A DNA stretch of 64,000 nucleotides, taken from contig OX387203.1 of assembly GCA_947561715.1 (NCBI GenBank), positions 3,906,001 through 3,970,000 of the forward strand, in the 5' to 3' direction. Every line of letters begins with the position of its first letter. Positions within the stretch are counted from its first letter, which is position 1. Under the pieces are notes generated by a model that worked only from the letters and a program-made list of their open reading frames with translations, ran no database searches and was not told the origin of the DNA. Position numbers and translations under genes: made by a program. Shown piece by piece: positions 2,670 through 59,900 of this stretch. This DNA comes from Ascidia mentula (lineage: Eukaryota; Chordata; Ascidiacea; Phlebobranchia; Ascidiidae).

Positions 2670-5600
2670 AATTCAATGATGTCTACCAAACTCCTGGGCC
2701 AAAAGCCGATAAAGGGTAAGTCGTCCTTCGTAATTGCAACCATGTATCCTATGTCTTTAGCACGAACCACGCGCTTTTTTGCCATTTAACGGTCCTGTCT
2801 GAGTCACGACTTTTCAATAGCTTGCATTATAATTAGTCAACTGGCTGAATGTTTAAGCGAAGGATGGTTTAGTATTTGCCTGTATTCTGTGCAAATTTGA
2901 TCTAGGCGCTGTAAAACGATAAAGGCCGTCGTTTATTGATGGGAAGCTACAGTTTCAGCGCCATAAAGAACTTATACGACCTGTCAATTGACTGAAGTTT
3001 GTTGCAAAATCAGCAGACTTGTAAGTGTAGGCCATGCACGATTTCAGTGAGCTGCATACAGATGGCCACTGTTTCATATATTATTGGCTCCACTTGCTTA
3101 TATGTAGGGTATGCACTGTTAAGCAATAAAGGGGGAAGACAAAATGGTTTTGCTATTGTACCTTTATTAGCCAAAATATGTTTGTTATAGCCCTGTCATG
3201 TTGTTTGTGTTTGCTAAACACGCGGTTAATGTCTACACAGGCAAAAATCGTTGGAAGAAGTAATGGCAAGACAAAAGAAATACAGTGACTCCAAGTAAGA
3301 TTGTGTTCTTTTTTAAGTATCCCTTACGTTAAATTTACACCTGAGTGAGATCACCTGATACTATAACAATTTGAAAAATTAAAATATTGTCACAATCTAA
3401 AATAGGCCGTGATCTTTTTTTTCAGAAAAGACAAAAAGAAAAAGAAGAAAAGTAAGAAGAAGAAAAAGAAAAAGAAGGAACGAATGAAAGTCGAACAAGT
3501 GTCGTTTTTTAAACTGGTATGAATTCACCTGAACATAAATTGTACGGCTACACATAAACCTAATCACCGTCACACCTCACACAACTGCTTTATTACAGCA
3601 GTTCAGGCGTGCCATTGCAAATAGAAATGAATCCAAAAGAATTCCTCCAACAAAACTATTAGGCGCCCATAGCTCATCCGACAAATTTTGTGATTTGGTG
3701 CTGGTTGGAAAACCTATTCTTTTAGTTTAATTCAACGGGATCGGTTGCAAAATAAACTTGTGGTGGTTTAACTTTATATTATGACTTAAGTTGCATAGAG
3801 CTACGAGTAAAATGTAAATAAAAGTATCGGTTGTATCATTATTTGCTGTTTACTTGCCCACATAGAGAGTCTAGTGGGTAAATAAGACTGACACTAATAT
3901 ATGTATTTCAATTCCTTACATGTTAACAATAATTTTTCCAGTTCACGTACGCCAGTAGAGTCGACTACATCCTAATGTTTTTTGGAACACTGGGAGCGAT
4001 TGTTCATGGCTCCGCCTTCCCGTATATGATGACAAGTACGTTAATAGTTTTTCCTAATGTAATGTAAAGGGCACGCACTCACAAAAATTCTCTGTGATGT
4101 TTAAGGGTTACCTTATGTTTCTTGTTTTTTATGTATTGCTACAATTTCTCTTGTTAAATATGACTTTTCACTAATAGGTTACAGTAAACGCATTCGTAAC
4201 TTAAGTGTCAGAAGAACAATTCCTATTAATTACTATGTCTGGATGCAAGAAAAGCATTATATCTCTTTTCTCCTTTACCTCGGTTGAAAACTTTGTGCGG
4301 ATGTTTAAACCATTATAACATCGACGAAATACGCCTTCTTGCTTGGAGCAGAATGCGTTGCAACAAAGCTATCAGGCTGATTGTAAAAAACGTGCTTCGT
4401 GAAATCAAAACAGACGTCCACTGTATCTCACTATCCAGTGTGTAGTGGTTTGAACAGAAGTGGTAATGTAGTATGGTAAATGTACTGGATTGCATTACTC
4501 TTACGACCACGAAACTAAATATGTATTGCTGTGTATCGAAGGCAATATTCGAAGTTTCTAACCACAAACGCAAGAAAAAACGGTTGCACATGGTAGTGGG
4601 TGGTAAAAACTGCTTTCCCTTCCAGTTTTCGGCCAAATGATTGACACCTTCATCAACTACAGTGTCTGCACTCAGCAAACCAATACCACATGCACAGCAG
4701 AAGAAATTAACCGAACCTACGAATCCCTTGGAATTGACCCCGACAACTTGACAGAAGAAGAACTACTTGTGTAAGTGCTGTAAACCTATGTACTTGATTT
4801 GTATTTATGGAATTGTGTGGAACTTTTGAAAATATATGCTACAAACTGTCAGTTGCCATTTCTTTGACTGAAATACCTATACCACTTTAAATGTTAAATT
4901 AACGCCTTTCCTTTAAACTTTAAAGGTAACTGTTACGTATTTATCCTTTCAGTCCTATCGATGTCGAAGGAGAGCTGGAAGTCTTCAGTTACTACTATGT
5001 AGCTATAGCGTGCATGGTGATCGTTTGTGGCTACCTGCAGGTAATTCTAGGCAACTTTATAACTCCATATGTCTAATAATAGCGAGGCATCAAACTGCTT
5101 TCGCTGGCCAACTTCAGAAAAAAGGCATCTATGTTTAGGTTCGATTATAAAATCAACCGCCATATATAAATAACTTTTTTCTTTTTAATTTTTTAATCCC
5201 TTGCTAGGTCGGCAACTGGGTTCTGGCCTCCACAAGACAAACAAGGCAGATCCGACAACTTTTTTTTCGGTCGATCATGAAAATGGAAATCGGGTGGTTT
5301 GATGTTCACCACATGGGGGAGCTAAACACCCGAATGAACGAGTAAGTTTAGATTTTTTGAAGTGTTTTTGACCACATCGGGATTCGAACCAAGGGTATTC
5401 TGGACACTAATCCTGATCAGGTTTTTTCCTTGGTGTACGGTTTGGGTGCCTTATGTTGCCAATTACCACCTCATTTATCGAGGATTAATATACTAGCGCG
5501 GTTTACAAATAAAAAACTTTAACCCAATATTTCAGATGTTTGCAAGAAAAAGCGTTTCAGACCAAACACTCTTGTAAGCTATACTTTTATGTGTAAAATG

Positions 5601-8600: not shown

Positions 8601-11600
8601 AACTCCACCTTTCAGATACTGGATAACCTGAGGTTAACTTTCAAGGCGGGTGAAACCACAGCGGTCGTGGGCCCGAGCGGCATGGGTAAAAGTACGATTC
8701 TCCAACTCGCTCAACGGTTCTACGACCCCGACAAGGGCGTGGTATGTGGCTTACTCGTTTACCCGTTTTACTCATGTTACTCTAATCGCAAACATGAGTC
8801 GCTTCTTATCACTAACACGAAAACTATACCATTGATCGGAAGATGTTTTGACCTGCCGATCGATTGCTGTCGGGCTGTGTACGTTGCAAAGTTTGTCCTG
8901 CGGCGGCTGTATGTTGTGGTTGACGGCCACAAGACAGTTAGTTACTATAAATGTTATTGGTATTCGATATTGCAAGGTTAAACCAGTTTAGTTTAATTGC
9001 GAAAATAACCAGAAGTATGGGTTTGAACCGAACATTATGTTATACCCACTGGTACACCCAATGGGAAACCACAATTCTCTAAGATATTGTTTCGTTGTTT
9101 CGGTAGCTGATTTATGATAAGTACCTAGGGTCAATTCTATAGTTTGCCCACAGTAAAGATTTCAATAATACTAAAGTAATGGTAATTTTTAGCCTTTTCT
9201 AAAATTTCAATACTTCGAGTGATGGACGATCAGTGTCAGTGCAATCTTTTTTTTGAAATTTTACAGAAAAATTAATTTCGCCTTGACTGCCTTGTCAGTT
9301 TCTGTGCTAAAGAAAGAATAAAAAAAACCACCAAGCTAACAAGCTGATTACTGTTGTCCTCATGATATTTCTTACTTCATTTCTTCTGCAAATAATTTAC
9401 CAATCGCTCTTACGAGCCGAGTGATCCCAAAACCACAACATTTCGTTTTTTTTTTCCTTGCATTGTTGCTCACAGGTAACTCTGGATGGCCATGACCTGC
9501 GCACTCTTAACACCCAGTGGTTGAGACAATTAATCGGGGTCGTACAACAAGAACCGAGTCTCTTTGCCACCAGCATTGAAGAAAATATCAGATTTGGGAG
9601 AGACGGGGTCACGGACGAAGAGATTATAAAAGCCGCCAAAGCTGCCAACGCTTACAACTTCATCATGGATTTGCCTGATGTAAGTTGATGATGAAGCTTT
9701 GTTGGATATTTGAGTGGCTGTTGACACTTTAAAATAAATTATATTGATTACGCCGTAGTGAAAGGGTTGTTCTGCCTCTTGTCAGTTATATTTGAATTTG
9801 AAAACGTGTTATCACCATCAACAATATTTTAAAAGATTCATTTTTTGATATTTTTTTGTAAAATGCATTAGTGGACGAGAAAAAAACGACCAAACATGGA
9901 AGAAATCAAATAAAATGTTTTTTTTTTAAATTTTTTTTGTTGTATAAAGAACGAAATTGTGCACCACTATAACGTCTAAAATTTTTATTTGGCATTTTCC
10001 AGAAATTCAAGACCGATGTAGGAACAGGTGGGGGACATCTTAGTGGTGGCCAGAAGCAGAGAATTGCCATCGCTCGAGCTCTTGTAAGAAACCCCAAAAT
10101 CTTGCTGCTAGATCAAGCTTGTTCTGCCCTTGATATGACAAGCGAAGCAATGGTATTACAAGAGTTAGACAAGGTATGTAAACCGTACAGACTTTTCGGC
10201 GGATCGATACGGAGAAAAATATGTAATATATTACACATACTGCAACATACCTTGGGGACCATACAGTGTCAATATACTCATGGTCATCCAAGTGTGTATG
10301 TTAGATCTTTAGCTCCAACCAGCGAGAATGTAAAATTTTGATAAAAAATGTATGTGTGCAAAAAAGCCATCATCATGCCATGTAGTTGTTTGGCCATAGT
10401 GCGCTCCACTGTGGTTCGTCTCTGTTGTTTGGTACCAGTTTGGTACCCAACGGATCGACGTTGACCGAACGGTACCACAAAGTGGAAACCTGTGTGCCTG
10501 CTAGTGTAAAAGCTAGCACAGTGCCATTGTGAACAGCTGCACTGATAAGACCTTATAGAAATAGTGTGTACACCCTGTCATACAGTTCTCAATAAACTGA
10601 ATGAATTCTGCATCTTATTTCGGAGTTACTCCGTTTCTATTATGAGGAAATTTTCACTTACCAAAATGCAATGGTTTTTGAATACCTCTGCGGACATTTA
10701 ATTTTGGCATGCTTCCACGTACAGGTAAGGCGAGGCCGCACAACAGTCATCGTTGCCCACCGCCTGTCAACCATTCGTGACGCTGACGTCATCGTTGGAG
10801 TCGAGCACGGAAAAGCAGTGGAGCGTGGCACGCACGCAGAACTGATGAAAAACAACGGCGTTTACTTTACACTGGTCACTCTCCAGGTATGAAACACTGT
10901 GTTTGTAAAAGTTGCAATGAAATGCAGTTACGAAAGAAATTTACTGATATATGTTTGCGTGTCTACGTACCTCCGCACACTCCTAACTGCAACACATTCT
11001 TACTTAGCACTGATGATGAACACAGCGGTGTTTGAAACGTCTGCTCCATGACAATCATAATAACTTTGGCTTTTCTCCAAGTTTACCTCAAAGTTTTTTT
11101 GCACTTTATCATATTCTCATGCCCGTTATTTGCAGACAACCAAGAAGAAGAAGGGAGGGGAAGGAAATGGCGGAAGTTCCTCAGATGACGGAAGTGACGG
11201 CGAAGGTAGAGACGGCTCAGGTAAAAGGAAATGAGAAATAAGTTTTATAGGACTCTTGAAGCCTAAAGTGGTGCAAAACTTTCAACTTACGCGTTGTTAT
11301 TGGACAATTTTTAACCCTATTTAAAAGGAAAGTCAAAAAATAACATATGTGAAAACAGAAGACTTGCTTGAAAACGGACCGGAAGTGGCGTTGGAACACG
11401 TGACCGACTTTGCACACGGACACCGCAGAAGCCTTAGGTCAGTTGTTGTTTAGATTCAAATTATTGTTTTGACTCAAATATTGTTGTTTTGGTTCAATTT
11501 TTGTTGTTTTGAATCAAATGTTGTTGTTTTAAATTCAAATGTTGTTGTTTTGGTTTAAATATTGTTGTTTTGATTCAAATATTGTTGTTTTGATTAAAAT

Positions 11601-44633: not shown

Positions 44634-44912
44634 GGCCCGGCTGTGCTAAAAACAAGTAGGGATTTGTTTGATATTGTGTCGGGAGCGTGATCAGCGGCCG
44701 CACGTTTGGTCGATTGACATTGACATACGCCAACTGATAGTTGGTTCATTCAAATTTAAACGAAACAAGAAGTTTTGGGGTTTTAATACATGCTGCACTG
44801 GAGTCTGTTTTGTGGTTCACACATGTTTGGGCCTTACTAAAGTTGCGGATTGCAAAATTATAAATTTAATAGCATGCTGTAGCCCACTTATATGCTCATG
44901 TGCAATTTAATT

Positions 44913-45030
44913 CACAAAGTGGAAGTCTTTGCTTGGCCGTTTGGTCAGCAAAGTCGTCTTATAGTCACACCAGCTGCACTGATGAGACCTTTTAGGTCGA
45001 AACAGTGGCCATCTGTCTGCAGCTTATACA
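44913..45030 (+). mobile_element. Hammerhead-bearing short retroelement, 118 bp, with target-site duplication
   Basis: The insertion is bounded by direct repeats CAATTTAATT at 44903-44912 and 45031-45040. It starts CACAAAGTGGAAG, contains a 7-bp hairpin (CTTTGCT/AGCAAAG), and then a full hammerhead ribozyme. The paralogous position in duplication unit 2 (about 47110) reads straight from GTGCAGTT into CTGGTTG with no insertion, i.e. an empty site. There is no coding capacity, so it must be nonautonomous. Small hammerhead-bearing elements are known in animals (for example the schistosome Sm-alpha family and newt satellite 2). Confidence 0.8.
44972..45024 (+). ncRNA. Type I hammerhead self-cleaving ribozyme
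   Basis: All parts are visible in order. Helix I strand AGCTGCA (44972-44978). Core CTGATGA (44979-44985). Helix II GACCT-TTT-AGGTC (44986-44998), closed by the usual G-C pair. Core GAA (44999-45001). Helix III ACAG/CTGT (45002-45005 with 45013-45016, 7-base loop), including the A15.1-U16.1 pair. Cleavage triplet GTC (45015-45017). The second helix I strand TGCAGCT (45018-45024) is a perfect complement of the first. Cleavage is expected 3' of C45017. The short helix III is typical of animal retroelement hammerheads, which often work best as dimers. No core position departs from consensus. Confidence 0.93.
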
Positions 45031-45719
45031 CAATTTAATTTATGATTGGTTGTTCTGTTGTTATTGTAAAACATAGCAAATAGTATAAAAATCCTCAAAC
45101 AACCCAGCTGCGCAACACACCTAGATTTCAAACTACGATATCTGTGTATATTTGCTCACTGGGTTACTGCCGGTGAAACCTAATGCTTCCGCTTACAAGT
45201 TAAACATTAACTTGCAGAAGTACCCACTTTGTGTCTAGCAATGCATTCAGCAATTTCCTGTGATGTTGTCTGAATTTAAATTGGTTAGATTCGTTTCAGT
45301 GCCACCATGCAAGCTGAACGCAGTTGCAAGATTTAAGCTCGAATGATTAGGGATATAAACTCTAACCCAACCCAGTTACAAGGCTATAGTTTATTATAGT
45401 TTAGGCCTGGCAGGTTTACATTTTTATGGTATTTTGGAAAAGTGAGCGTTATTGCGATTACAATAGAACCCGGTCTAGATTCGATTTGTGCGACAACTTC
45501 GTTGCATTGCACGTTGCTTTGTTATTGCTTCGTTAATAATACTGAAGTCGTATGTTAGACTATAACATACAAATGTTTTACAGAGTTTAAGTGGTTTGTA
45601 GGCAGTTAATTTATATTTCAGTTTTGTCACATAAGAATTAAGCATTGCGTATGAAGAACAGCGACGCTATATCTTACTAACAAAGTACAAGGCTTTCATC
45701 AAAAAATTTCAACTGTTTT

Positions 45720-45732
45720 TTTGAGAATTTAG
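45720..45732 (+). other. 3' splice site just before GNAT-like gene 1
   Basis: A pyrimidine run (CTGTTTTTTTG) and AG at 45731-45732 lie 11 bases before the start codon. The equivalent site is kept in copy 2. It fits either a 5' UTR intron or a trans-splicing (spliced leader) acceptor. Confidence 0.55.
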
Positions 45733-45743
45733 GATATATACAA

Positions 45744-46532
45744 ATGTTTTCGACTGTTCGAAATTGTGGCAGGTGCTACAGATTTGCCTGGAACAGGTTT
45801 GCGAGTGATTTATACGTGACAAAATGTGGAACACATCCCAACAAATCGGAGTTTGATAACAAACGAAAACACGTGCTTTCTCAAATCGAATGCAGGCGCC
45901 TCACCGAAAACGATCTGCCTCAGGGAATCGAGTTTGTAGAGAAGTTTTTCACAATGCAAAATCCGATACGGAAAATTTTTAAACTGTCGATGGAAGACAT
46001 TAGCCATTACGATGAGATGCGCGTGTCCAAAATAAAAGAAAATCTTTCCTTTGGCCTCTTTCATAAAGTCAACAAGCAACTGGTAAACATAATGATATGT
46101 ACCGTGCAGAAAAAGGGTGCATTGTCAACGGGCGAAATTGCCACATCCACACCCAAATTCCACACCCTTCAAAGATTTATGGAGTCACTGGAAGGCGACC
46201 TGTTCAAATACCTCAAAACCGAAAAGTACTTGCTATTTTTACTTGGAGCTACAGATCCACAATACACGAGGATAAGACTTTGGGAGCATTTTGATATTTC
46301 GGGCGTACACAACAAACTGGCCGAGGAGAACGGCTGCGAACACGTGGTCACCGTTTCGGTATCGGAGTTTTCCCGTCGACACGCGCTAAGAACTGGGGGG
46401 TTTTCAGTACTGAGGGAGGTTAAATATGAAGGCTACGTGGATCCCATTACAGGGAAAAAGCCGGATTTGGATTTGTCCCCGACGCACACAACTGCAACTG
46501 TGCTCGTCAAACGAGTGACCCCATCTGCATAA
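45744..46532 (+). CDS. GNAT-fold acetyltransferase-like protein, copy 1 (intronless)
   Basis: One uninterrupted 262-residue coding exon. The C-terminal half resembles arylalkylamine N-acetyltransferase-like GNAT proteins: ENGCEHVVTVSVSEFSRRHA, a RTGGFSVLREVKYEGY segment like the usual LGF...REVRYEDY, then VDPITG and a closing strand (TTATVLVKRV). The acetyl-CoA loop motif (R/Q-x-x-G-x-G/A) expected before it is not seen: the segment reads TDPQYTRIRLWEHF, without the glycines. Activity is therefore doubtful. The N-terminal about 20 residues are basic and could be a targeting sequence. Upstream in-frame codons are interrupted by stops, which supports this start. Poly(A) signal AATAAA at 46546-46551. 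Confidence 0.8.
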   Translation: MFSTVRNCGRCYRFAWNRFASDLYVTKCGTHPNKSEFDNKRKHVLSQIECRRLTENDLPQGIEFVEKFFTMQNPIRKIFKLSMEDISHYDEMRVSKIKENLSFGLFHKVNKQLVNIMICTVQKKGALSTGEIATSTPKFHTLQRFMESLEGDLFKYLKTEKYLLFLLGATDPQYTRIRLWEHFDISGVHNKLAEENGCEHVVTVSVSEFSRRHALRTGGFSVLREVKYEGYVDPITGKKPDLDLSPTHTTATVLVKRVTPSA

Positions 46533-47988
46533 CAGCTCAACTTGTAATAAATGCAATAAGTTTTAGATGCAACGCTACTATTTGGACGATGTGCTAAAAT
46601 TAGCGTTTTTAAGCCTACCGAGACCCCAACCACACACCGTCCGCAATATTGCAATAAAATACGTGAATTTCACTCTGTTACCAAATGTTTTGCGATAATA
46701 ACTCTAAGCGTTTTTGAATGCAATCTATCAATACTACCCACGAATATAAACGTCCTTAAGAAGGAAATTTTCCAGCAAGGAATCCTCATTGCAATACTTC
46801 TATAATACACAAACTATAAGCATTGTTCTCTCGATTGAGGCCCGGCTGTGCCAAAAACAAGTAGGAATTTGTTTGATATTGTGTCGGGAGAGTGATCAGA
46901 GGGCGCACGTTCGGTCGATTGAATCAACTATGACACTGATAGTTGGTTCAGGCAATTCATATTTAAACGAAACAAGAAGTTTTGGGGTTTCAATACACGA
47001 GTTATTGAGTTTGTTTTTTGTTCCACACACGTTTGGGTCTAATTGAAGTAATGCATTGCAAAATGAAAATTTTTGAAGCAAGCTGTATAGCCTATACTTA
47101 TCTACCTAAAAGTGCAGTTCTGGTTGGGCGTTCGGAGGTTATTGCAAAACAGAAAATAGTGTAATTGAACAAAACAAACCAACTTACTATATGTTTAACG
47201 CCATAAGGTTCACAGGCTTCGCAGCCAAGGCATTGCGGCCAAGCCTGATCTACGCCATGTTTATTTTAACATCATCTTCGATGGTCTAGCCGGGGTGAAC
47301 ATTGACCAGCTAAAACACACAATAATTTTGAACTATGATATACGGACATGTTTACACCCCGAGGTCCTGGCAGTTAAACCTGCAATTGTCCCACTTACGT
47401 GTTCGTAGTAGAACATTAACTTGCACTAACGTGTTCGTCTGCAGACCACATAACCAGTGATAAAAATCTATAGCAAAATGATCCAGTTTGTGTCTGGTAA
47501 TGACAATTTCGTATATATTTTGTTACGCTTATTTGGAGTCGGACTGTTAGTATATGAAGGTTCGATTTTTGTCACTTTACTAGCATTGGAATTCTTGTTA
47601 GTGAGATAGCGCATTGATAATATTAAGGCTTAAAAAATCAAACGCTTCAAGTCTGTTCGATATAGACGAGGTTTGGTTTGGTGTATGAATGTATATGACA
47701 GAAGTAGAAAAATCGATGTACCCCTAACTTCGTACGAATTAGACAAAGTTTTAAAATTGACAACACTTTATATTGCATGTTGCTTCCGAAGATGCAGTCT
47801 AGGTAATGATATTATAGCTTAGTCAATGATACTGTTGGAAACACACGAAGACGAGTTTTATACAATAACATACAAATGTTTTACAGAGCTAAAGTGGTTT
47901 GTAGGCAGTCAATTTATGCTGCAATTTCGTCCGATTTCTATCAAGCCTCACCACAAAGTACAAGGCTTTCATCACAAAGTTTGCAACC

Positions 47989-48005
47989 TGTTTTTAATAA
48001 TTTAG
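47989..48005 (+). other. 3' splice site just before GNAT-like gene 2
   Basis: CCTGTTTTTAATAATTTAG ends at 48005, five bases before the start codon at 48011, at the same relative place as in copy 1. Because of it, the longer in-frame extension up to an ATG at 47876 is probably intron or outron rather than protein. Confidence 0.55.
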
Positions 48006-48010
48006 GACAA

Positions 48011-48814
48011 ATGTTTTCGATAGTTCAAAATGGTGGCAAGTGCCACAGATTGGCCTGGAACAGGTTTGCAAGTTATTTTAACGTGAAAAATATGGGGCAC
48101 AAATGTGTAACACATCGCAATAAGACGGAGCTTGAAACCCAGCGAAAACAAGTGGTTGCTCAAATCGAATGCAGGCGCCTCACCGAAAACGATCTGCCTC
48201 AAGGATTAGAGTTCATAGAGAAGTTTTTCACGATGCAAAATCCAATTCGGAAAATTTTTAAACTCTCAACGGAAGACATCAGCCAATACGATGAGATGCG
48301 CGTGTCAAAAATGAAAGAAAGCCTGTCCTTTGGCCTGTTTCATAAAGTCAACAAGAAACCAGTAAGCATAACGATATACACTGTTCAGAAAAAAGAGACA
48401 TTATCTGAAGATGAAAAAATTGCCACATCCACACCCAAATTTGACACCCTTCAACGATTTATGGAGTCACTGGAAGGCGACTTGTTTAAAGACCTCAAAA
48501 CCGAAAAGTACTTGCTATTTTCATTTGGAGCTACAGATCCCCAATACACGAGAATAAGACTTTGGGAGCATTTTGATATTTCGGGCATACAGAACAGACT
48601 GGCCGAGGAGAACGGCTGCGAACACGTGGTCGCCGTTACAGTATCAGAGTTTTCCCGCAGATACGCGCAAAGAACTGGGGGGTTTTCAGTACTGAGGGAG
48701 GTTAAATATGAAGACTACGTGGATCCCATTACAGGGGAAAAGCCGGATTTGGATTTGTCCCCGACGCACACAACTGCAACTGTGCTCGTCAAACGAGTGA
48801 CCCCATCTGCATAA
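48011..48814 (+). CDS. GNAT-fold acetyltransferase-like protein, copy 2 (intronless)
   Basis: A 267-residue paralogue of the gene at 45744-46532, roughly 85% identical by eye, with small indels near the N-terminus and around KKETLSEDEKI. The same GNAT-like C-terminal half is present, and the same loss of the glycine loop (TDPQYTRIRLWEHF). The start at 48011 is chosen because it aligns with copy 1 and follows the conserved splice acceptor. An upstream ATG at 47876 is open in frame and would add 45 residues, but the matching DNA in copy 1 has a stop. Poly(A) signal at 48827-48832. Both copies keep intact frames, so both appear to be under selection. Confidence 0.8.
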   Translation: MFSIVQNGGKCHRLAWNRFASYFNVKNMGHKCVTHRNKTELETQRKQVVAQIECRRLTENDLPQGLEFIEKFFTMQNPIRKIFKLSTEDISQYDEMRVSKMKESLSFGLFHKVNKKPVSITIYTVQKKETLSEDEKIATSTPKFDTLQRFMESLEGDLFKDLKTEKYLLFSFGATDPQYTRIRLWEHFDISGIQNRLAEENGCEHVVAVTVSEFSRRYAQRTGGFSVLREVKYEDYVDPITGEKPDLDLSPTHTTATVLVKRVTPSA

Positions 48815-49085
48815 CAGCCAACTTGTAATAAATGCAATAAGTTTTATATAAATTTTAAAAAATCACACACCTTCCGCAATATTGCAATGAAATGCGTGAA
48901 TTTGACTCTGTTCCTAAATGTTTTGCGATGATACGTTTTTGTTTTTGCGACCTGAGCGTTTTTAAATGCAATCAACAAATACTACCCACGATTATAATGT
49001 CCTTTAAGAAGGAATTTTTCCAGCAAAGAATCCTTATTTGAAATACTTCGACACAAATTTCAAGCATGGTACTCTCGATTGGGGC

Positions 49086-56981: not shown

Positions 56982-59900
56982 TCAGCCTGTACACTGCGGA
57001 GAGCTTATATTGCAATTGCACTTGCAGTCGCTGACTGGACATTGCTTGAATTGCCTGGTGAAATGTGAATAGTATTTCACGTTAAATGTTGTGAATTGCT
57101 TCGTGTCTTCCAATTCGCCTGTTCTTCTGGCACAATTAAACATCTACTTCTATGAAGCCGACTCTAGTTAAACAGCAGGTAAAAAGTATGCGTTTAATTT
57201 TGCCAGAAGAGCAGATTAATTGAAATACAATATGCCTGGAAGCAATATGCATGTTGACTGACTTAAACCATTCCTGAAGGTGCCCGTGGTGGCCTCCGTG
57301 CTTGCACTTCATACACCATGATGACCAGCTGTCAAAATCTAAACAAAATAACTGTGTTTGGGGGTACTGGAAAAATGTTTGGAAATCTGTATGGTGGATG
57401 ACACTAGAAGTGTGAGAGCATGCGCTTCAGACCAAACGAGTTGCGCGTTTTGGCGAGAAGTTTATGCTGTGAGACGAAATGAATTTTTTTACTACTTGAA
57501 ATTGCGGAATGGGCACAGTATCGATCCACAATATAAAGATTGCTTTATGGCATTTAGGCTGTGTTATTGGTTGGTACAATTGTTTCAATTACAAATCGCT
57601 AAAATTCTATTTTAAGCAGATTCGAAATCTAGGCTAGCAACAGCATCCCTTTCTTAACTAACCTGTTTCCAGGGGTCTGGTGCCTGCATGTAGGGAACAT
57701 ACAGAACACCGTGGCAAAGGTTTTCGACAAGAGGGACAACTGGTTATCTGTGTAAATTGGAGGTATTGGTTGATTGAGTGTTGAGTTAAAAGCATAGTTG
57801 TTTTTTTACTACTCACGGGGCTCTGTGTCGCTAGGTTTCCGCTGAGCATGTAGCGACCTCTAGAGGATGGAACTGAGAAATAGGTTTTCGAATTAGCGCT
57901 ATGTGACAAAGGTTTAAAAATTCTAAACAGAATGCAATATAGCGGGCTGAACAATAACATGAACGCTTGACGTGAAACAGTTATACAATATATGAACAGT
58001 ATTGGGTTTTTCAGTACTCTGATTTAAAGGAGCTGCACGACATACGCTATATACATTGATGAGTAAAGTATACATTGAAAACGTACAACCTTCGCTCTTT
58101 GGAGTCAAAGCCTCCGGAACTTTTTCCCTGCTTTGCGCTTTACTTTGAACTGCGTCCATTAAACTGAAATCTGGTTCTGAACCTGTGTTCACACAACGTT
58201 TGTCGTAATCTACAATTCTCCCTTCGAAATACTACCTTTCTGCACATCTTTTTTTCGCTTTTACGGTTTATATAATGTACTAAATAACTTGTACAAAATG
58301 GAATTAGTGACGTATCATATGATAGTACTCTACACTATGTGTACGCCTTGCAGGCAATTTTTACTGCGTCATATTGAACGCTAATTCCAAGATAACTGAG
58401 TTTAAAGGATTTCACAACTTCAATTGTTTTTTCTTTTTTAACTGATAATATAAGCAATAGAACCAATGTTTTTTACAGTGAGATGAACACAGAGGGCCGC
58501 TGTTTCGACCTAGCTATGGTGTGACTATTTAGGTGTCTAGCCAGCTATTTAGCTGATAAGATCGTTAAAAGTCAAACTGTAACTGCACTAATAAGACCCG
58601 TTAGGTCGAAACAGTGGACCTGTCTGCAGCTCACTATAACTTTTAATGATTTGCCCATCTCCTCATATGCTACATGTCTAACTTTACGTAAGACCTTACG
58701 GGCTCAACTTACGGCGCTGCACTGGTGAGAACAACATAGCACATTTCTGCAAAATACGAGGACTTCGTTTAGGTGTGTTGAACACTTGTGGTGGCTTCCT
58801 GGGTGTACTGATAGACTGCTGTGATTGCTGACACTTCCTGGATGTAGATCTAAGATCACTTGAAGAGCTGTGTGAACGTGGACGAATACATTTCCCCGCT
58901 TCTGTGGTTTTAGCGGTTTAGAAAATAACCATTGTACAATGAAACTGTCTGAATGTTTGCAAACTGCGCCTGTTGTTGCAACAATTGTTGCTATAGTTTG
59001 CTTGCTACTGCAAGGCAGTAATACGACTTTAGGACTGAACTGTGCGGTGAGTTATATAAGTAATTGCACAACCAAAAGTTGTAAAACCAATCTAATTTCC
59101 AAAGGATATAATATCTTACGTTATTTAAAAACTTCAAAGCTCTTCTGCTAAAATTTAATTTGTCGACGTTTTAGCTTTGAATTTTTTGAATATTATGCCT
59201 GGTAGCGTTAGCAACAAAATATCTTACATCATGTTTGTTTCTGGCACAACAATCGAAGAATCCAGCAGTCATATCGTTGTCATACCGTATACTTTTTATC
59301 ACATGTAAGTCCCTTATTCGGATTAATGACACAGCACAACGATAAACAGAATAAAAGCATTTTAGATTGATCGTTGTCCAGTCATTAATAATTGAACAAT
59401 AATGCTAATTATTCCAACGTAGCAGCGTGGAAGCCAACAACCTTACCGACTACTTTGCTTGCGTTAATGATGCTCTTGTTGCAGTAATTACAGAAAACCA
59501 ATATCTGGGAATTGGGTTTGCGGGATCCAAGTGCTTTTGCCCATGCCATGTCAAATTTAACTCTTTCGTTGTAAAGCATCCAGCGATTTAACAACAGCGT
59601 GTAACTGCAACACACAAGGGTTTTTAATTAAGTGCCGGTACACGATATTTACAATAAGTTTGCGAAACGGCGACGGTGCGTTATCACTTGAAACAAAAGA
59701 TAGTTGTTTTGGTGAAATGGTTTGAAGTACGTTTTTCTCAGCTGTAACTAAAACATGTTGATGTGTGTCATGTTTACCAAGAAGACAACATACATAAATT
59801 ATTACGATAACGCGCATTCAGCCAAAAGGCTTTAACAAATCATTGCGTAATACCTTTCTTTCCAATGTAAAACAGGAACAGAGTTGAGCCGCATTCTATC

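What the first reader, a model, noticed from the sequence alone, without database searches (positions are those of the whole stretch)
44972..45024. Complete type I hammerhead ribozyme with a perfect core
Seen directly: CTGATGA, helix II GACCT/AGGTC, GAA, helix III ACAG/CTGT with A15.1-U16.1, a GTC cleavage triplet, and two fully complementary 7-base helix I strands (AGCTGCA and TGCAGCT) in the correct order. From knowledge of the hammerhead family, every invariant base is present. The RNA should cleave itself 3' of C45017. It lies about 700 bases upstream of a GNAT-like gene.
Basis: partly seen in the sequence, partly recalled or inferred. Interest (0 to 1): 0.92.

Follow-up and report, generated by a model that had tools for sequence, protein, structure and literature searches.

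The report
Self-cutting RNA element in a tunicate
The hammerhead ribozyme is real but is one cut-down copy of an abundant jumping RNA element (a retrozyme) in a sea-squirt-like animal, and the way its copies sit in the genome carries the fingerprint of Penelope-type reverse transcriptase, which bears on the open question of what moves these elements.

Summary
The motif is confirmed at 44972-45024: a type I hammerhead with all core bases, predicted cleavage after C45017. No Rfam model passes threshold, so the case rests on comparison. It lies in a 118-bp insert (44913-45030) between 10-bp target duplications. The insert is a 5'-truncated copy of a ~285-bp tandem unit. A hammerhead core pattern matches 2255 places genome-wide, against 22 for the reversed pattern. 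The host is a tunicate, by its mitochondrial code. This is a metazoan non-LTR retrozyme, a known kind.

The insertion pattern looks new. Among the best-matching copies, 33 of 43 insertions are head-to-head pairs with both 3' ends outward; 32 of the 33 have one 'short' and one 'long' end, about 29 nt apart. A second family shows 10 of 12, and resident Penelope-like elements 10 pairs, one other set aside. The two halves share one template sequence (170 of 180 sites). Transmitted variants avoid the ribozyme; later ones do not. I infer that Penelope-type machinery copies uncut or circular retrozyme RNA from both target strands. No Penelope locus compared shares the retrozyme tail, so the partner is unnamed.

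The parts
44903..44912 (.). left target-site duplication CAATTTAATT
   Evidence: on the + strand this 10-mer occurs exactly twice in the 64-kb window, at 44903 and 45031, on the two edges of the insert
44913..45030 (+). 5'-truncated retrozyme insert, unit positions 1-118, with a 'short' 3' end; about 41% of the 285-bp unit
   Evidence: right edge set by eye from the target-site duplication; the script did not find this duplication because chance similarity carried its right edge to 45049
44972..45024 (+). type I hammerhead ribozyme
   Evidence: sequence; each of the 7 other loci L002-L008 holds at least one copy matching 53/53
44972..44978 (+). helix I, 5' strand AGCTGCA
44979..44985 (+). core CTGATGA (C3-A9)
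   Evidence: position numbers recalled
44986..44998 (+). helix II GACCT-TTT-AGGTC
   Evidence: loop varies between copies
44999..45001 (+). core GAA (G12-A14)
   Evidence: position numbers recalled
45002..45016 (+). helix III ACAG-TGGCCAT-CTGT, with self-complementary TGGCCA in the loop; many copies of a second family have GTGTATACAC or GTGTACAC there instead
45017..45018 (+). predicted cleavage between C45017 (C17) and T45018
   Evidence: by hammerhead rules (recalled); not tested
45018..45024 (+). helix I, 3' strand TGCAGCT
45031..45040 (.). right target-site duplication CAATTTAATT

Best explanation
The feature is a truncated genomic copy of a non-autonomous, non-LTR retrozyme of a tunicate. 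Proposed cycle: (1) tandem copies are transcribed (inferred). (2) Type I hammerheads cut the RNA after unit position 105, probably best as dimers through the self-complementary loop III (cleavage inferred; dimer fold computed). (3) The monomers are ligated into ~285-nt circles (inferred from published animal retrozymes). (4) A Penelope-type RT/GIY-YIG protein nicks both strands of an AT-rich target and uses both 3' ends as primers on one retrozyme RNA. One strand starts at the 'short' site (unit ~119-121), the other at the 'long' site (unit ~147-151), 14-16 and 42-46 nt downstream of the cleavage point, at the base and in the 3' arm of a predicted hairpin (the two sites are shown by the insertions; the enzyme is inferred). 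(5) Each cDNA runs upstream for a fraction of a lap up to nearly six laps, and the two meet head-to-head, mostly with a few bases of overlap (shown). Because both start sites lie just downstream of the cleavage point yet copies run through it, the template must be uncut or re-closed there; a circle explains this most simply. The window copy is a one-sided insertion that stopped after 118 nt, so it may cut itself if transcribed but cannot by itself yield a full circle.
For: Tandem unit of period 285, 99% matches, in L006. Genome-wide copies. Of 43 insertions analysed, 33 are head-to-head, 32 of them with one short and one long end, none with two of the same. Second family (291-bp unit): 10 of 12 head-to-head insertions short+long. 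Autonomous Penelope family A (RVT_1 + GIY-YIG on a 617-aa stretch): the outer ends in 44 rows lie at query 177-187 or 213-222 (three rows run through to 276 inside arrays and one ending at 174 is a junction piece), and 10 pairs are short+long (9, 1). A target-site duplication of at least 10 bp is found in 36 of 43 insertions (32 of the 33 head-to-head ones), against 1.7% of 1806 mismatched left/right pairs; the 36 are all different and 80% A+T, against 62% in the flanks. One template per insertion: 12 of 314 insertion-site cases mixed, against 145 expected and a minimum of 120 in 2000 draws; the two halves agree at 170 of 180 informative sites. No stretch over 24 bp of other DNA lies between the pieces of a family-1 insertion. 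The ribozyme is protected in transmission: 2 of 24 distinct transmitted variants fall in it, both in the outermost pair of helix I, against 35 of 99 post-insertion cases (p = 0.012). A circular unit folds more stably than 60 of 60 shuffles (z -2.85).
Against: No Rfam hammerhead model passes threshold. No Penelope locus in hand shares the retrozyme tail beyond reversed controls, so the partner is not named. Exceptions to the end rule: L078 in family 1, L090 (long+long) and L101 (unclear) in family 2. An 11th Penelope A pair (C67:6425556/6429393) is short+short; I set it aside because its two flanks are an inverted duplication of each other. The copies were taken from the best matches, not at random. 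The circle is not shown: an uncut multimer transcript would also read through the cleavage site. No expression or cleavage data.
Confidence: 0.8

Rival explanations
1. The template is an uncut multimeric transcript of a genomic array rather than a circle; Penelope-type machinery is used all the same.
For: Arrays are internally uniform, so a transcript of one would be uniform too. In PMC11167929 ribozyme mutants did not affect Penelope insertion in vitro.
Against: No family-1 insertion analysed carries host flanks or over 24 bp of other DNA between its pieces, although run-off into flanks would be expected from short source arrays. Transmitted variants avoid the ribozyme, which suggests that cleavage matters.
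Confidence: 0.25
2. It is a shrunken non-autonomous Penelope derivative (a pLTR-like deletion product) rather than a retrozyme proper.
For: Same insertion anatomy as Penelope family A, and both have a hammerhead upstream of the two start sites.
Against: No sequence in common with the Penelope loci compared, apart from separate retrozyme copies lying near some of them. The ribozyme has a 4-bp helix III, unlike the minimal Penelope type. Unit size, G+C and tandem form fit published retrozymes.
Confidence: 0.15
3. A LINE moves it, with inversion by twin priming, as for SINEs.
For: Target-site duplications of about 10-16 bp and 5' truncation also fit LINE-type target-primed reverse transcription.
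Against: Twin priming (recalled) puts the outer edge of the inverted part anywhere inside the element; here it lies at one of the two 3' sites in 32 of 33 pairs. The 3' edges that I read by eye show no shared poly-A or simple-repeat tail.
Confidence: 0.05
4. A lone regulatory ribozyme in the leader of the downstream gene.
For: It lies 720 bp upstream of a 262-aa ORF on the same strand.
Against: Dispersed copies genome-wide, clean target-site duplication, no counterpart beside the tandem-duplicated gene at 47876.
Confidence: 0.02
5. Chance occurrence of a hammerhead-like sequence.
For: Core-only pattern reached by 15 of 100 shuffles; sub-threshold Rfam scores.
Against: 2255 against 22 genome-wide; ribozyme protected in transmitted copies.
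Confidence: 0.01

Closest known systems
Metazoan non-LTR retrozymes (Cervera and de la Pena 2020, PMC7229834)
   Same: type I hammerhead, ~170-400-nt units in small tandem arrays, G+C under 50%, no LTR, target duplications longer than 4 bp, self-paired predicted circle, coexistence with Penelope-like elements
   Different: a tunicate family that I did not find in the papers seen; its insertions show head-to-head pairing with a near-strict short+long end rule, which is not in the parts of that paper that I read
Newt/axolotl hammerhead repeats (PMC7229834)
   Same: weak monomer fold and self-complementary loop III, pointing to dimer cleavage
   Different: helix III has 4 bp here rather than 1-2
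Penelope/Poseidon elements (PMC11167929; PMC3846280)
   Same: cut and extend both strands, internal RT start at two sites, optional ~30-40-bp tail on one of the inverted repeats, head-to-head copies, AT-rich target
   Different: retrozyme has no ORF and shares no sequence with the Penelope loci in hand; its start sites are ~29 nt apart, ~38 in family A
Schistosoma Sma-type hammerhead SINE-like repeats (recalled)
   Same: small non-coding repeat with a type I hammerhead
   Different: no sequence comparison made; loop-loop contacts of that ribozyme are not evident here (recalled)

Membership tests
Hammerhead ribozyme, type I | conserved core CUGANGA...GAA, A15.1-U16.1, H17, three helices, helix I open | tested here: met
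   read directly
Hammerhead ribozyme, type I | Rfam covariance score at or above the gathering cut-off | tested here: not met
   no hammerhead model over its cut-off in 5 related loci either
Hammerhead ribozyme, type I | constraint on the motif in propagating copies | tested here: met
   2 of 24 distinct transmitted variants against 35 of 99 private cases in the motif
Hammerhead ribozyme, type I | loop 1-loop 2 tertiary contact | tested here: inconclusive
   loop II is 3 nt and helix I has no bulge within 7 bp; contact not evident by eye
Hammerhead ribozyme, type I | self-cleavage | not testable with these tools
   no bench data
Metazoan non-LTR retrozyme | unit of ~170-400 bp in tandem copies carrying a type I hammerhead | tested here: met
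   285-bp unit; 291-bp second family. The window copy itself is a partial monomer.
Metazoan non-LTR retrozyme | G+C below 50%, no coding region | tested here: met
   47.4% G+C; lack of a sizeable coding region follows from the 285-bp size, no separate coding test made
Metazoan non-LTR retrozyme | target-site duplication longer than 4 bp | tested here: met
   10 bp or more in 36 of 43, control 1.7%; window copy 10 bp
Metazoan non-LTR retrozyme | expressed as circular RNA | not testable with these tools
   no RNA data
Moved by Penelope-type machinery | head-to-head copies, two 3' ends 30-40 nt apart, one of each per pair | tested here: met
   32 of 33, spacing ~29 nt; 10 of 12; Penelope A 10 of 11 pairs, the 11th explained by flank duplication
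Moved by Penelope-type machinery | tail sequence shared with an autonomous Penelope family of the genome | tested here: not met
   best scores not above reversed controls over the 46 Penelope-side loci compared (48 held, L058 and L062 left out because retrozymes lie in them); families not fetched remain open

The most novel reading that the evidence does not exclude
Animal retrozyme circles are copied in trans by Penelope-type enzyme through coupled dual priming: one RNA is held with two start sites about 29 nt apart on a hairpin, each target strand takes one site, and both polymerases run round the same circle. The genome record of head-to-head, one-short-one-long, single-template insertions would then be the missing evidence for which machinery moves animal retrozymes, and for the circle as template.
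Probability: 0.55. Interest if true: 0.75.

Novelty: new member of a known kind. Interest (0 to 1): 0.6.

Why it matters
A 2020 review states that animal retrozymes show no conserved motif from which the partner retrotransposon could be deduced (PMC7761336, passages), and the 2020 paper calls Penelope-like elements a strong candidate (PMC7229834, discussion). Here the anatomy of the insertions supplies such a clue, shared by two retrozyme families and a resident Penelope family. It makes the question testable with one purified protein and one RNA. The single-template result and the protection of the ribozyme in transmitted copies also bear on whether the circle is the real template.

Tried and rejected
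Regulatory role for the downstream gene: rejected (repeat, target duplication; no Pfam hit). Rfam as arbiter: uninformative; family 2 also stays under threshold. Shared tail with a Penelope family: none found among the loci compared. Empty site in the tandem duplicate of the gene (46947-47870): no ribozyme there, but the alignment is too diverged to place the site. Unit homogeneity alone as proof of a circle: rejected, since a transcript of a uniform array would look the same. The p-value of 4.8e-8 counts related insertions as independent, so I rely on the distinct-variant value 0.012; even there the 99 private cases are counted per insertion and site, and one deletion spans several of them. 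A second family-1 query returned nearly the same places as and added nothing. Rows dropped before counting: single hits under 60 bits and lone hits under 85% identity (old relics). The loci are best matches, not a random sample. One short+short pair of Penelope family A was set aside for the reason given.

Full report
WHAT IS THERE. The sequence at 44972-45024 is exactly as described. All hammerhead core bases are present and helix I is the open helix, so it is type I, with predicted cleavage after C45017. Rfam finds no family above threshold in the window; its best sub-threshold hits, at 21.6 and 19.8 bits, are a type III model with a shifted alignment and RAGATH-1-hammerhead. Chance could produce the bare core (15 of 100 shuffles), so the identification must rest on comparison.

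IT IS A REPEAT. A search of the window's own 196-Mb genome with 44880-45060 gave 52 listed matches, 92-100% identical, from 1805 first-look candidates of which 40 were scored. One locus, L006, is a tandem array of period 285. With that unit as query, 165 matches came back from 2097 candidates, 40 scored. A hammerhead pattern matches 1141 + 1114 places genome-wide; the reversed pattern matches 14 + 8. About 100 places were listed there, most retrozyme-like, a few of other kinds. The mitochondrial COX1 gene reads sensibly at its conserved glycines only if AGA/AGG mean glycine. That is the ascidian code (recalled), so the host is a tunicate; the species is not identified.

THE WINDOW COPY. It is unit positions 1-118 (44913-45030), flanked by CAATTTAATT at 44903 and 45031. 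On the + strand that 10-mer occurs nowhere else in the 64 kb. Three further relics of such elements lie in the window. The neighbouring gene is tandemly duplicated, and the second copy's upstream region has no such element.

THE INSERTION RULE. I analysed 43 family-1 insertions, taken from the best matches and so not a random sample. 33 are head-to-head pairs with both 3' ends outward, 9 are one-sided (the window copy among them) and 1 is complex. The 3' ends fall in two groups, unit 116-124 and 145-154 after correction by target duplication, plus one at 84; the ribozyme cuts after unit 105. Of the 33 pairs, 32 have one short and one long end, none has two alike, and one (L078) has an odd end. 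If the two halves were independent and the sites equally used, 32 discordant pairs would have probability 2^-32. The script found some target duplication in 38 of 43. With a floor of 10 bp it is 36 of 43, and 32 of the 33 pairs; 1806 mismatched left/right combinations give 1.7%. The lengths (mostly 12-16) allow one mismatch from 12 bp up and some overlap with the element. The 36 are all different, so the insertions are separate events, and they are 80% A+T against 62% in the flanks. A second family (unit 291 bp, same helices, different loops) was looked at in 19 loci, 12 of them head-to-head: 10 short+long (L100 assigned by hand from its 13-bp target duplication), one long+long (L090) and one unclear (L101).

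THE SAME RULE IN PENELOPE ELEMENTS. A GIY-YIG search shows many open Penelope-like frames, up to 892 aa, and family A carries RVT_1 and GIY-YIG. A 3'-end query of family A gave 44 rows from 326 candidates, 40 scored. The outer ends lie at 177-187 or 213-222 only; three rows run to 276 inside arrays and one ending at 174 is an inner junction piece. Nine opposed pairs in that call plus the L057 pair are short+long. An eleventh, C67:6425556/6429393, is short+short, but its two flanks are inverted copies of each other, so I set it aside. I read target duplications by eye for three of the ten; the other seven were paired by position only. Family A carries a minimal hammerhead upstream of its two ends. 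The literature describes head-to-head Penelope copies with an optional 31-bp tail on one of the inverted repeats (PMC3846280, passages), and a purified Penelope protein that cuts and extends both strands and starts internally at two sites; it reports no start-site difference between strands (PMC11167929, parts 1 and 2 of 4). The rule seen here is stricter than those statements.

ONE TEMPLATE PER INSERTION. At 11 sites that differ between insertions, 314 insertion-site cases had two or more copies; 12 were mixed, against 145 expected if copies were independent (minimum 120 in 2000 draws). The two halves agreed at 170 of 180 sites in 21 insertions. No piece of other DNA over 24 bp lies between the pieces of an insertion. 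One half reaches nearly six laps (C1_3331186). Since both start sites lie just downstream of the cleavage point, a cut linear monomer could give only ~14-46 nt of cDNA; the copies run far past it, so the RNA was uncut or re-closed.

THE RIBOZYME MATTERS FOR SPREADING. Variants shared by all copies of an insertion came in with the template; variants in some copies only arose later or in copying. Of 24 distinct shared variants, 2 lie in the ribozyme, both in the outermost pair of helix I; of 99 private cases, 35 do (p = 0.012; unit 113-165 and 10 nt at piece ends were left out; private cases are not fully independent). The ribozyme makes up 2061 of 6790 compared insertion-sites, so private variants hit it at about the neutral rate.

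FOLDS. The 53-mer alone folds best in a non-hammerhead form by 1.4 kcal/mol; two copies fold best as a double hammerhead. Many listed copies of the second family have a self-complementary loop III of different sequence. The circular unit folds at -90.1 kcal/mol, z -2.85. In both families the two start sites lie at or in a predicted hairpin.

LIMITS. No RNA data, no cleavage test, no named Penelope partner: the tail does not match the Penelope loci compared better than reversed controls. My statement that I did not find this in print rests on searches of an open-access library without preprints, of which I saw only the listed top papers; no search named the short+long rule itself. One tunicate paper (PMC8704543, passages) lists 9 type I hammerhead loci in Didemnum vexillum without linking them to retrozymes in the passages seen. 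Of PMC7229834 I read parts 1-3 of 6 and the discussion; PMC7761336 and PMC6431247 in passages.

VERDICT. The element is ordinary in kind (a new tunicate member of the metazoan retrozymes). The insertion pattern is the part worth attention.

Noticed in passing
window 3025-3110, 10380-10610, 58480-58640: Three decayed retrozyme relics; those at 3025-3110 and 58480-58640 look like head-to-head pairs.
   Followed up: partly
window 44634-46790 and 46839-49038: Tandem duplication of a ~2.2-kb unit carrying a long open frame (262 and 312 aa) with no Pfam match; the retrozyme is found only upstream of the first copy.
   Followed up: partly
L051-L055 (G000:C67:6133700-6147200): Penelope-like array of five units of 2870-bp period, two in one and three in the other orientation, without stop codons; four frames of 885-892 aa and one of 559 aa at the head-to-head junction. 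A likely recently active family.
   Followed up: partly
L040-L067 and L108-L127, 3' of the GIY-YIG domain: Several Penelope families carry a CTGANGA..GAAA hammerhead-like core near the 3' end, with a helix II of different sequence in each; in 9 of the 20 loci L108-L127 none was found.
   Followed up: partly
family 1 and 2 unit, just after the ribozyme: The two otherwise diverged retrozyme families keep a similar tail (TATTAT.GGCTC), perhaps the enzyme's recognition site.
   Followed up: partly
G000:C67:6425300-6429850 (L088, L089): A Penelope copy whose two flanks are an inverted duplication of each other.
   Followed up: no
inner (5') ends of the halves of the 33 head-to-head insertions: 17 of 66 inner ends, counted by hand, lie at unit 56-74, the 5' side of the ribozyme (about 4 expected if even), as if its fold stalls the enzyme.
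   Followed up: no
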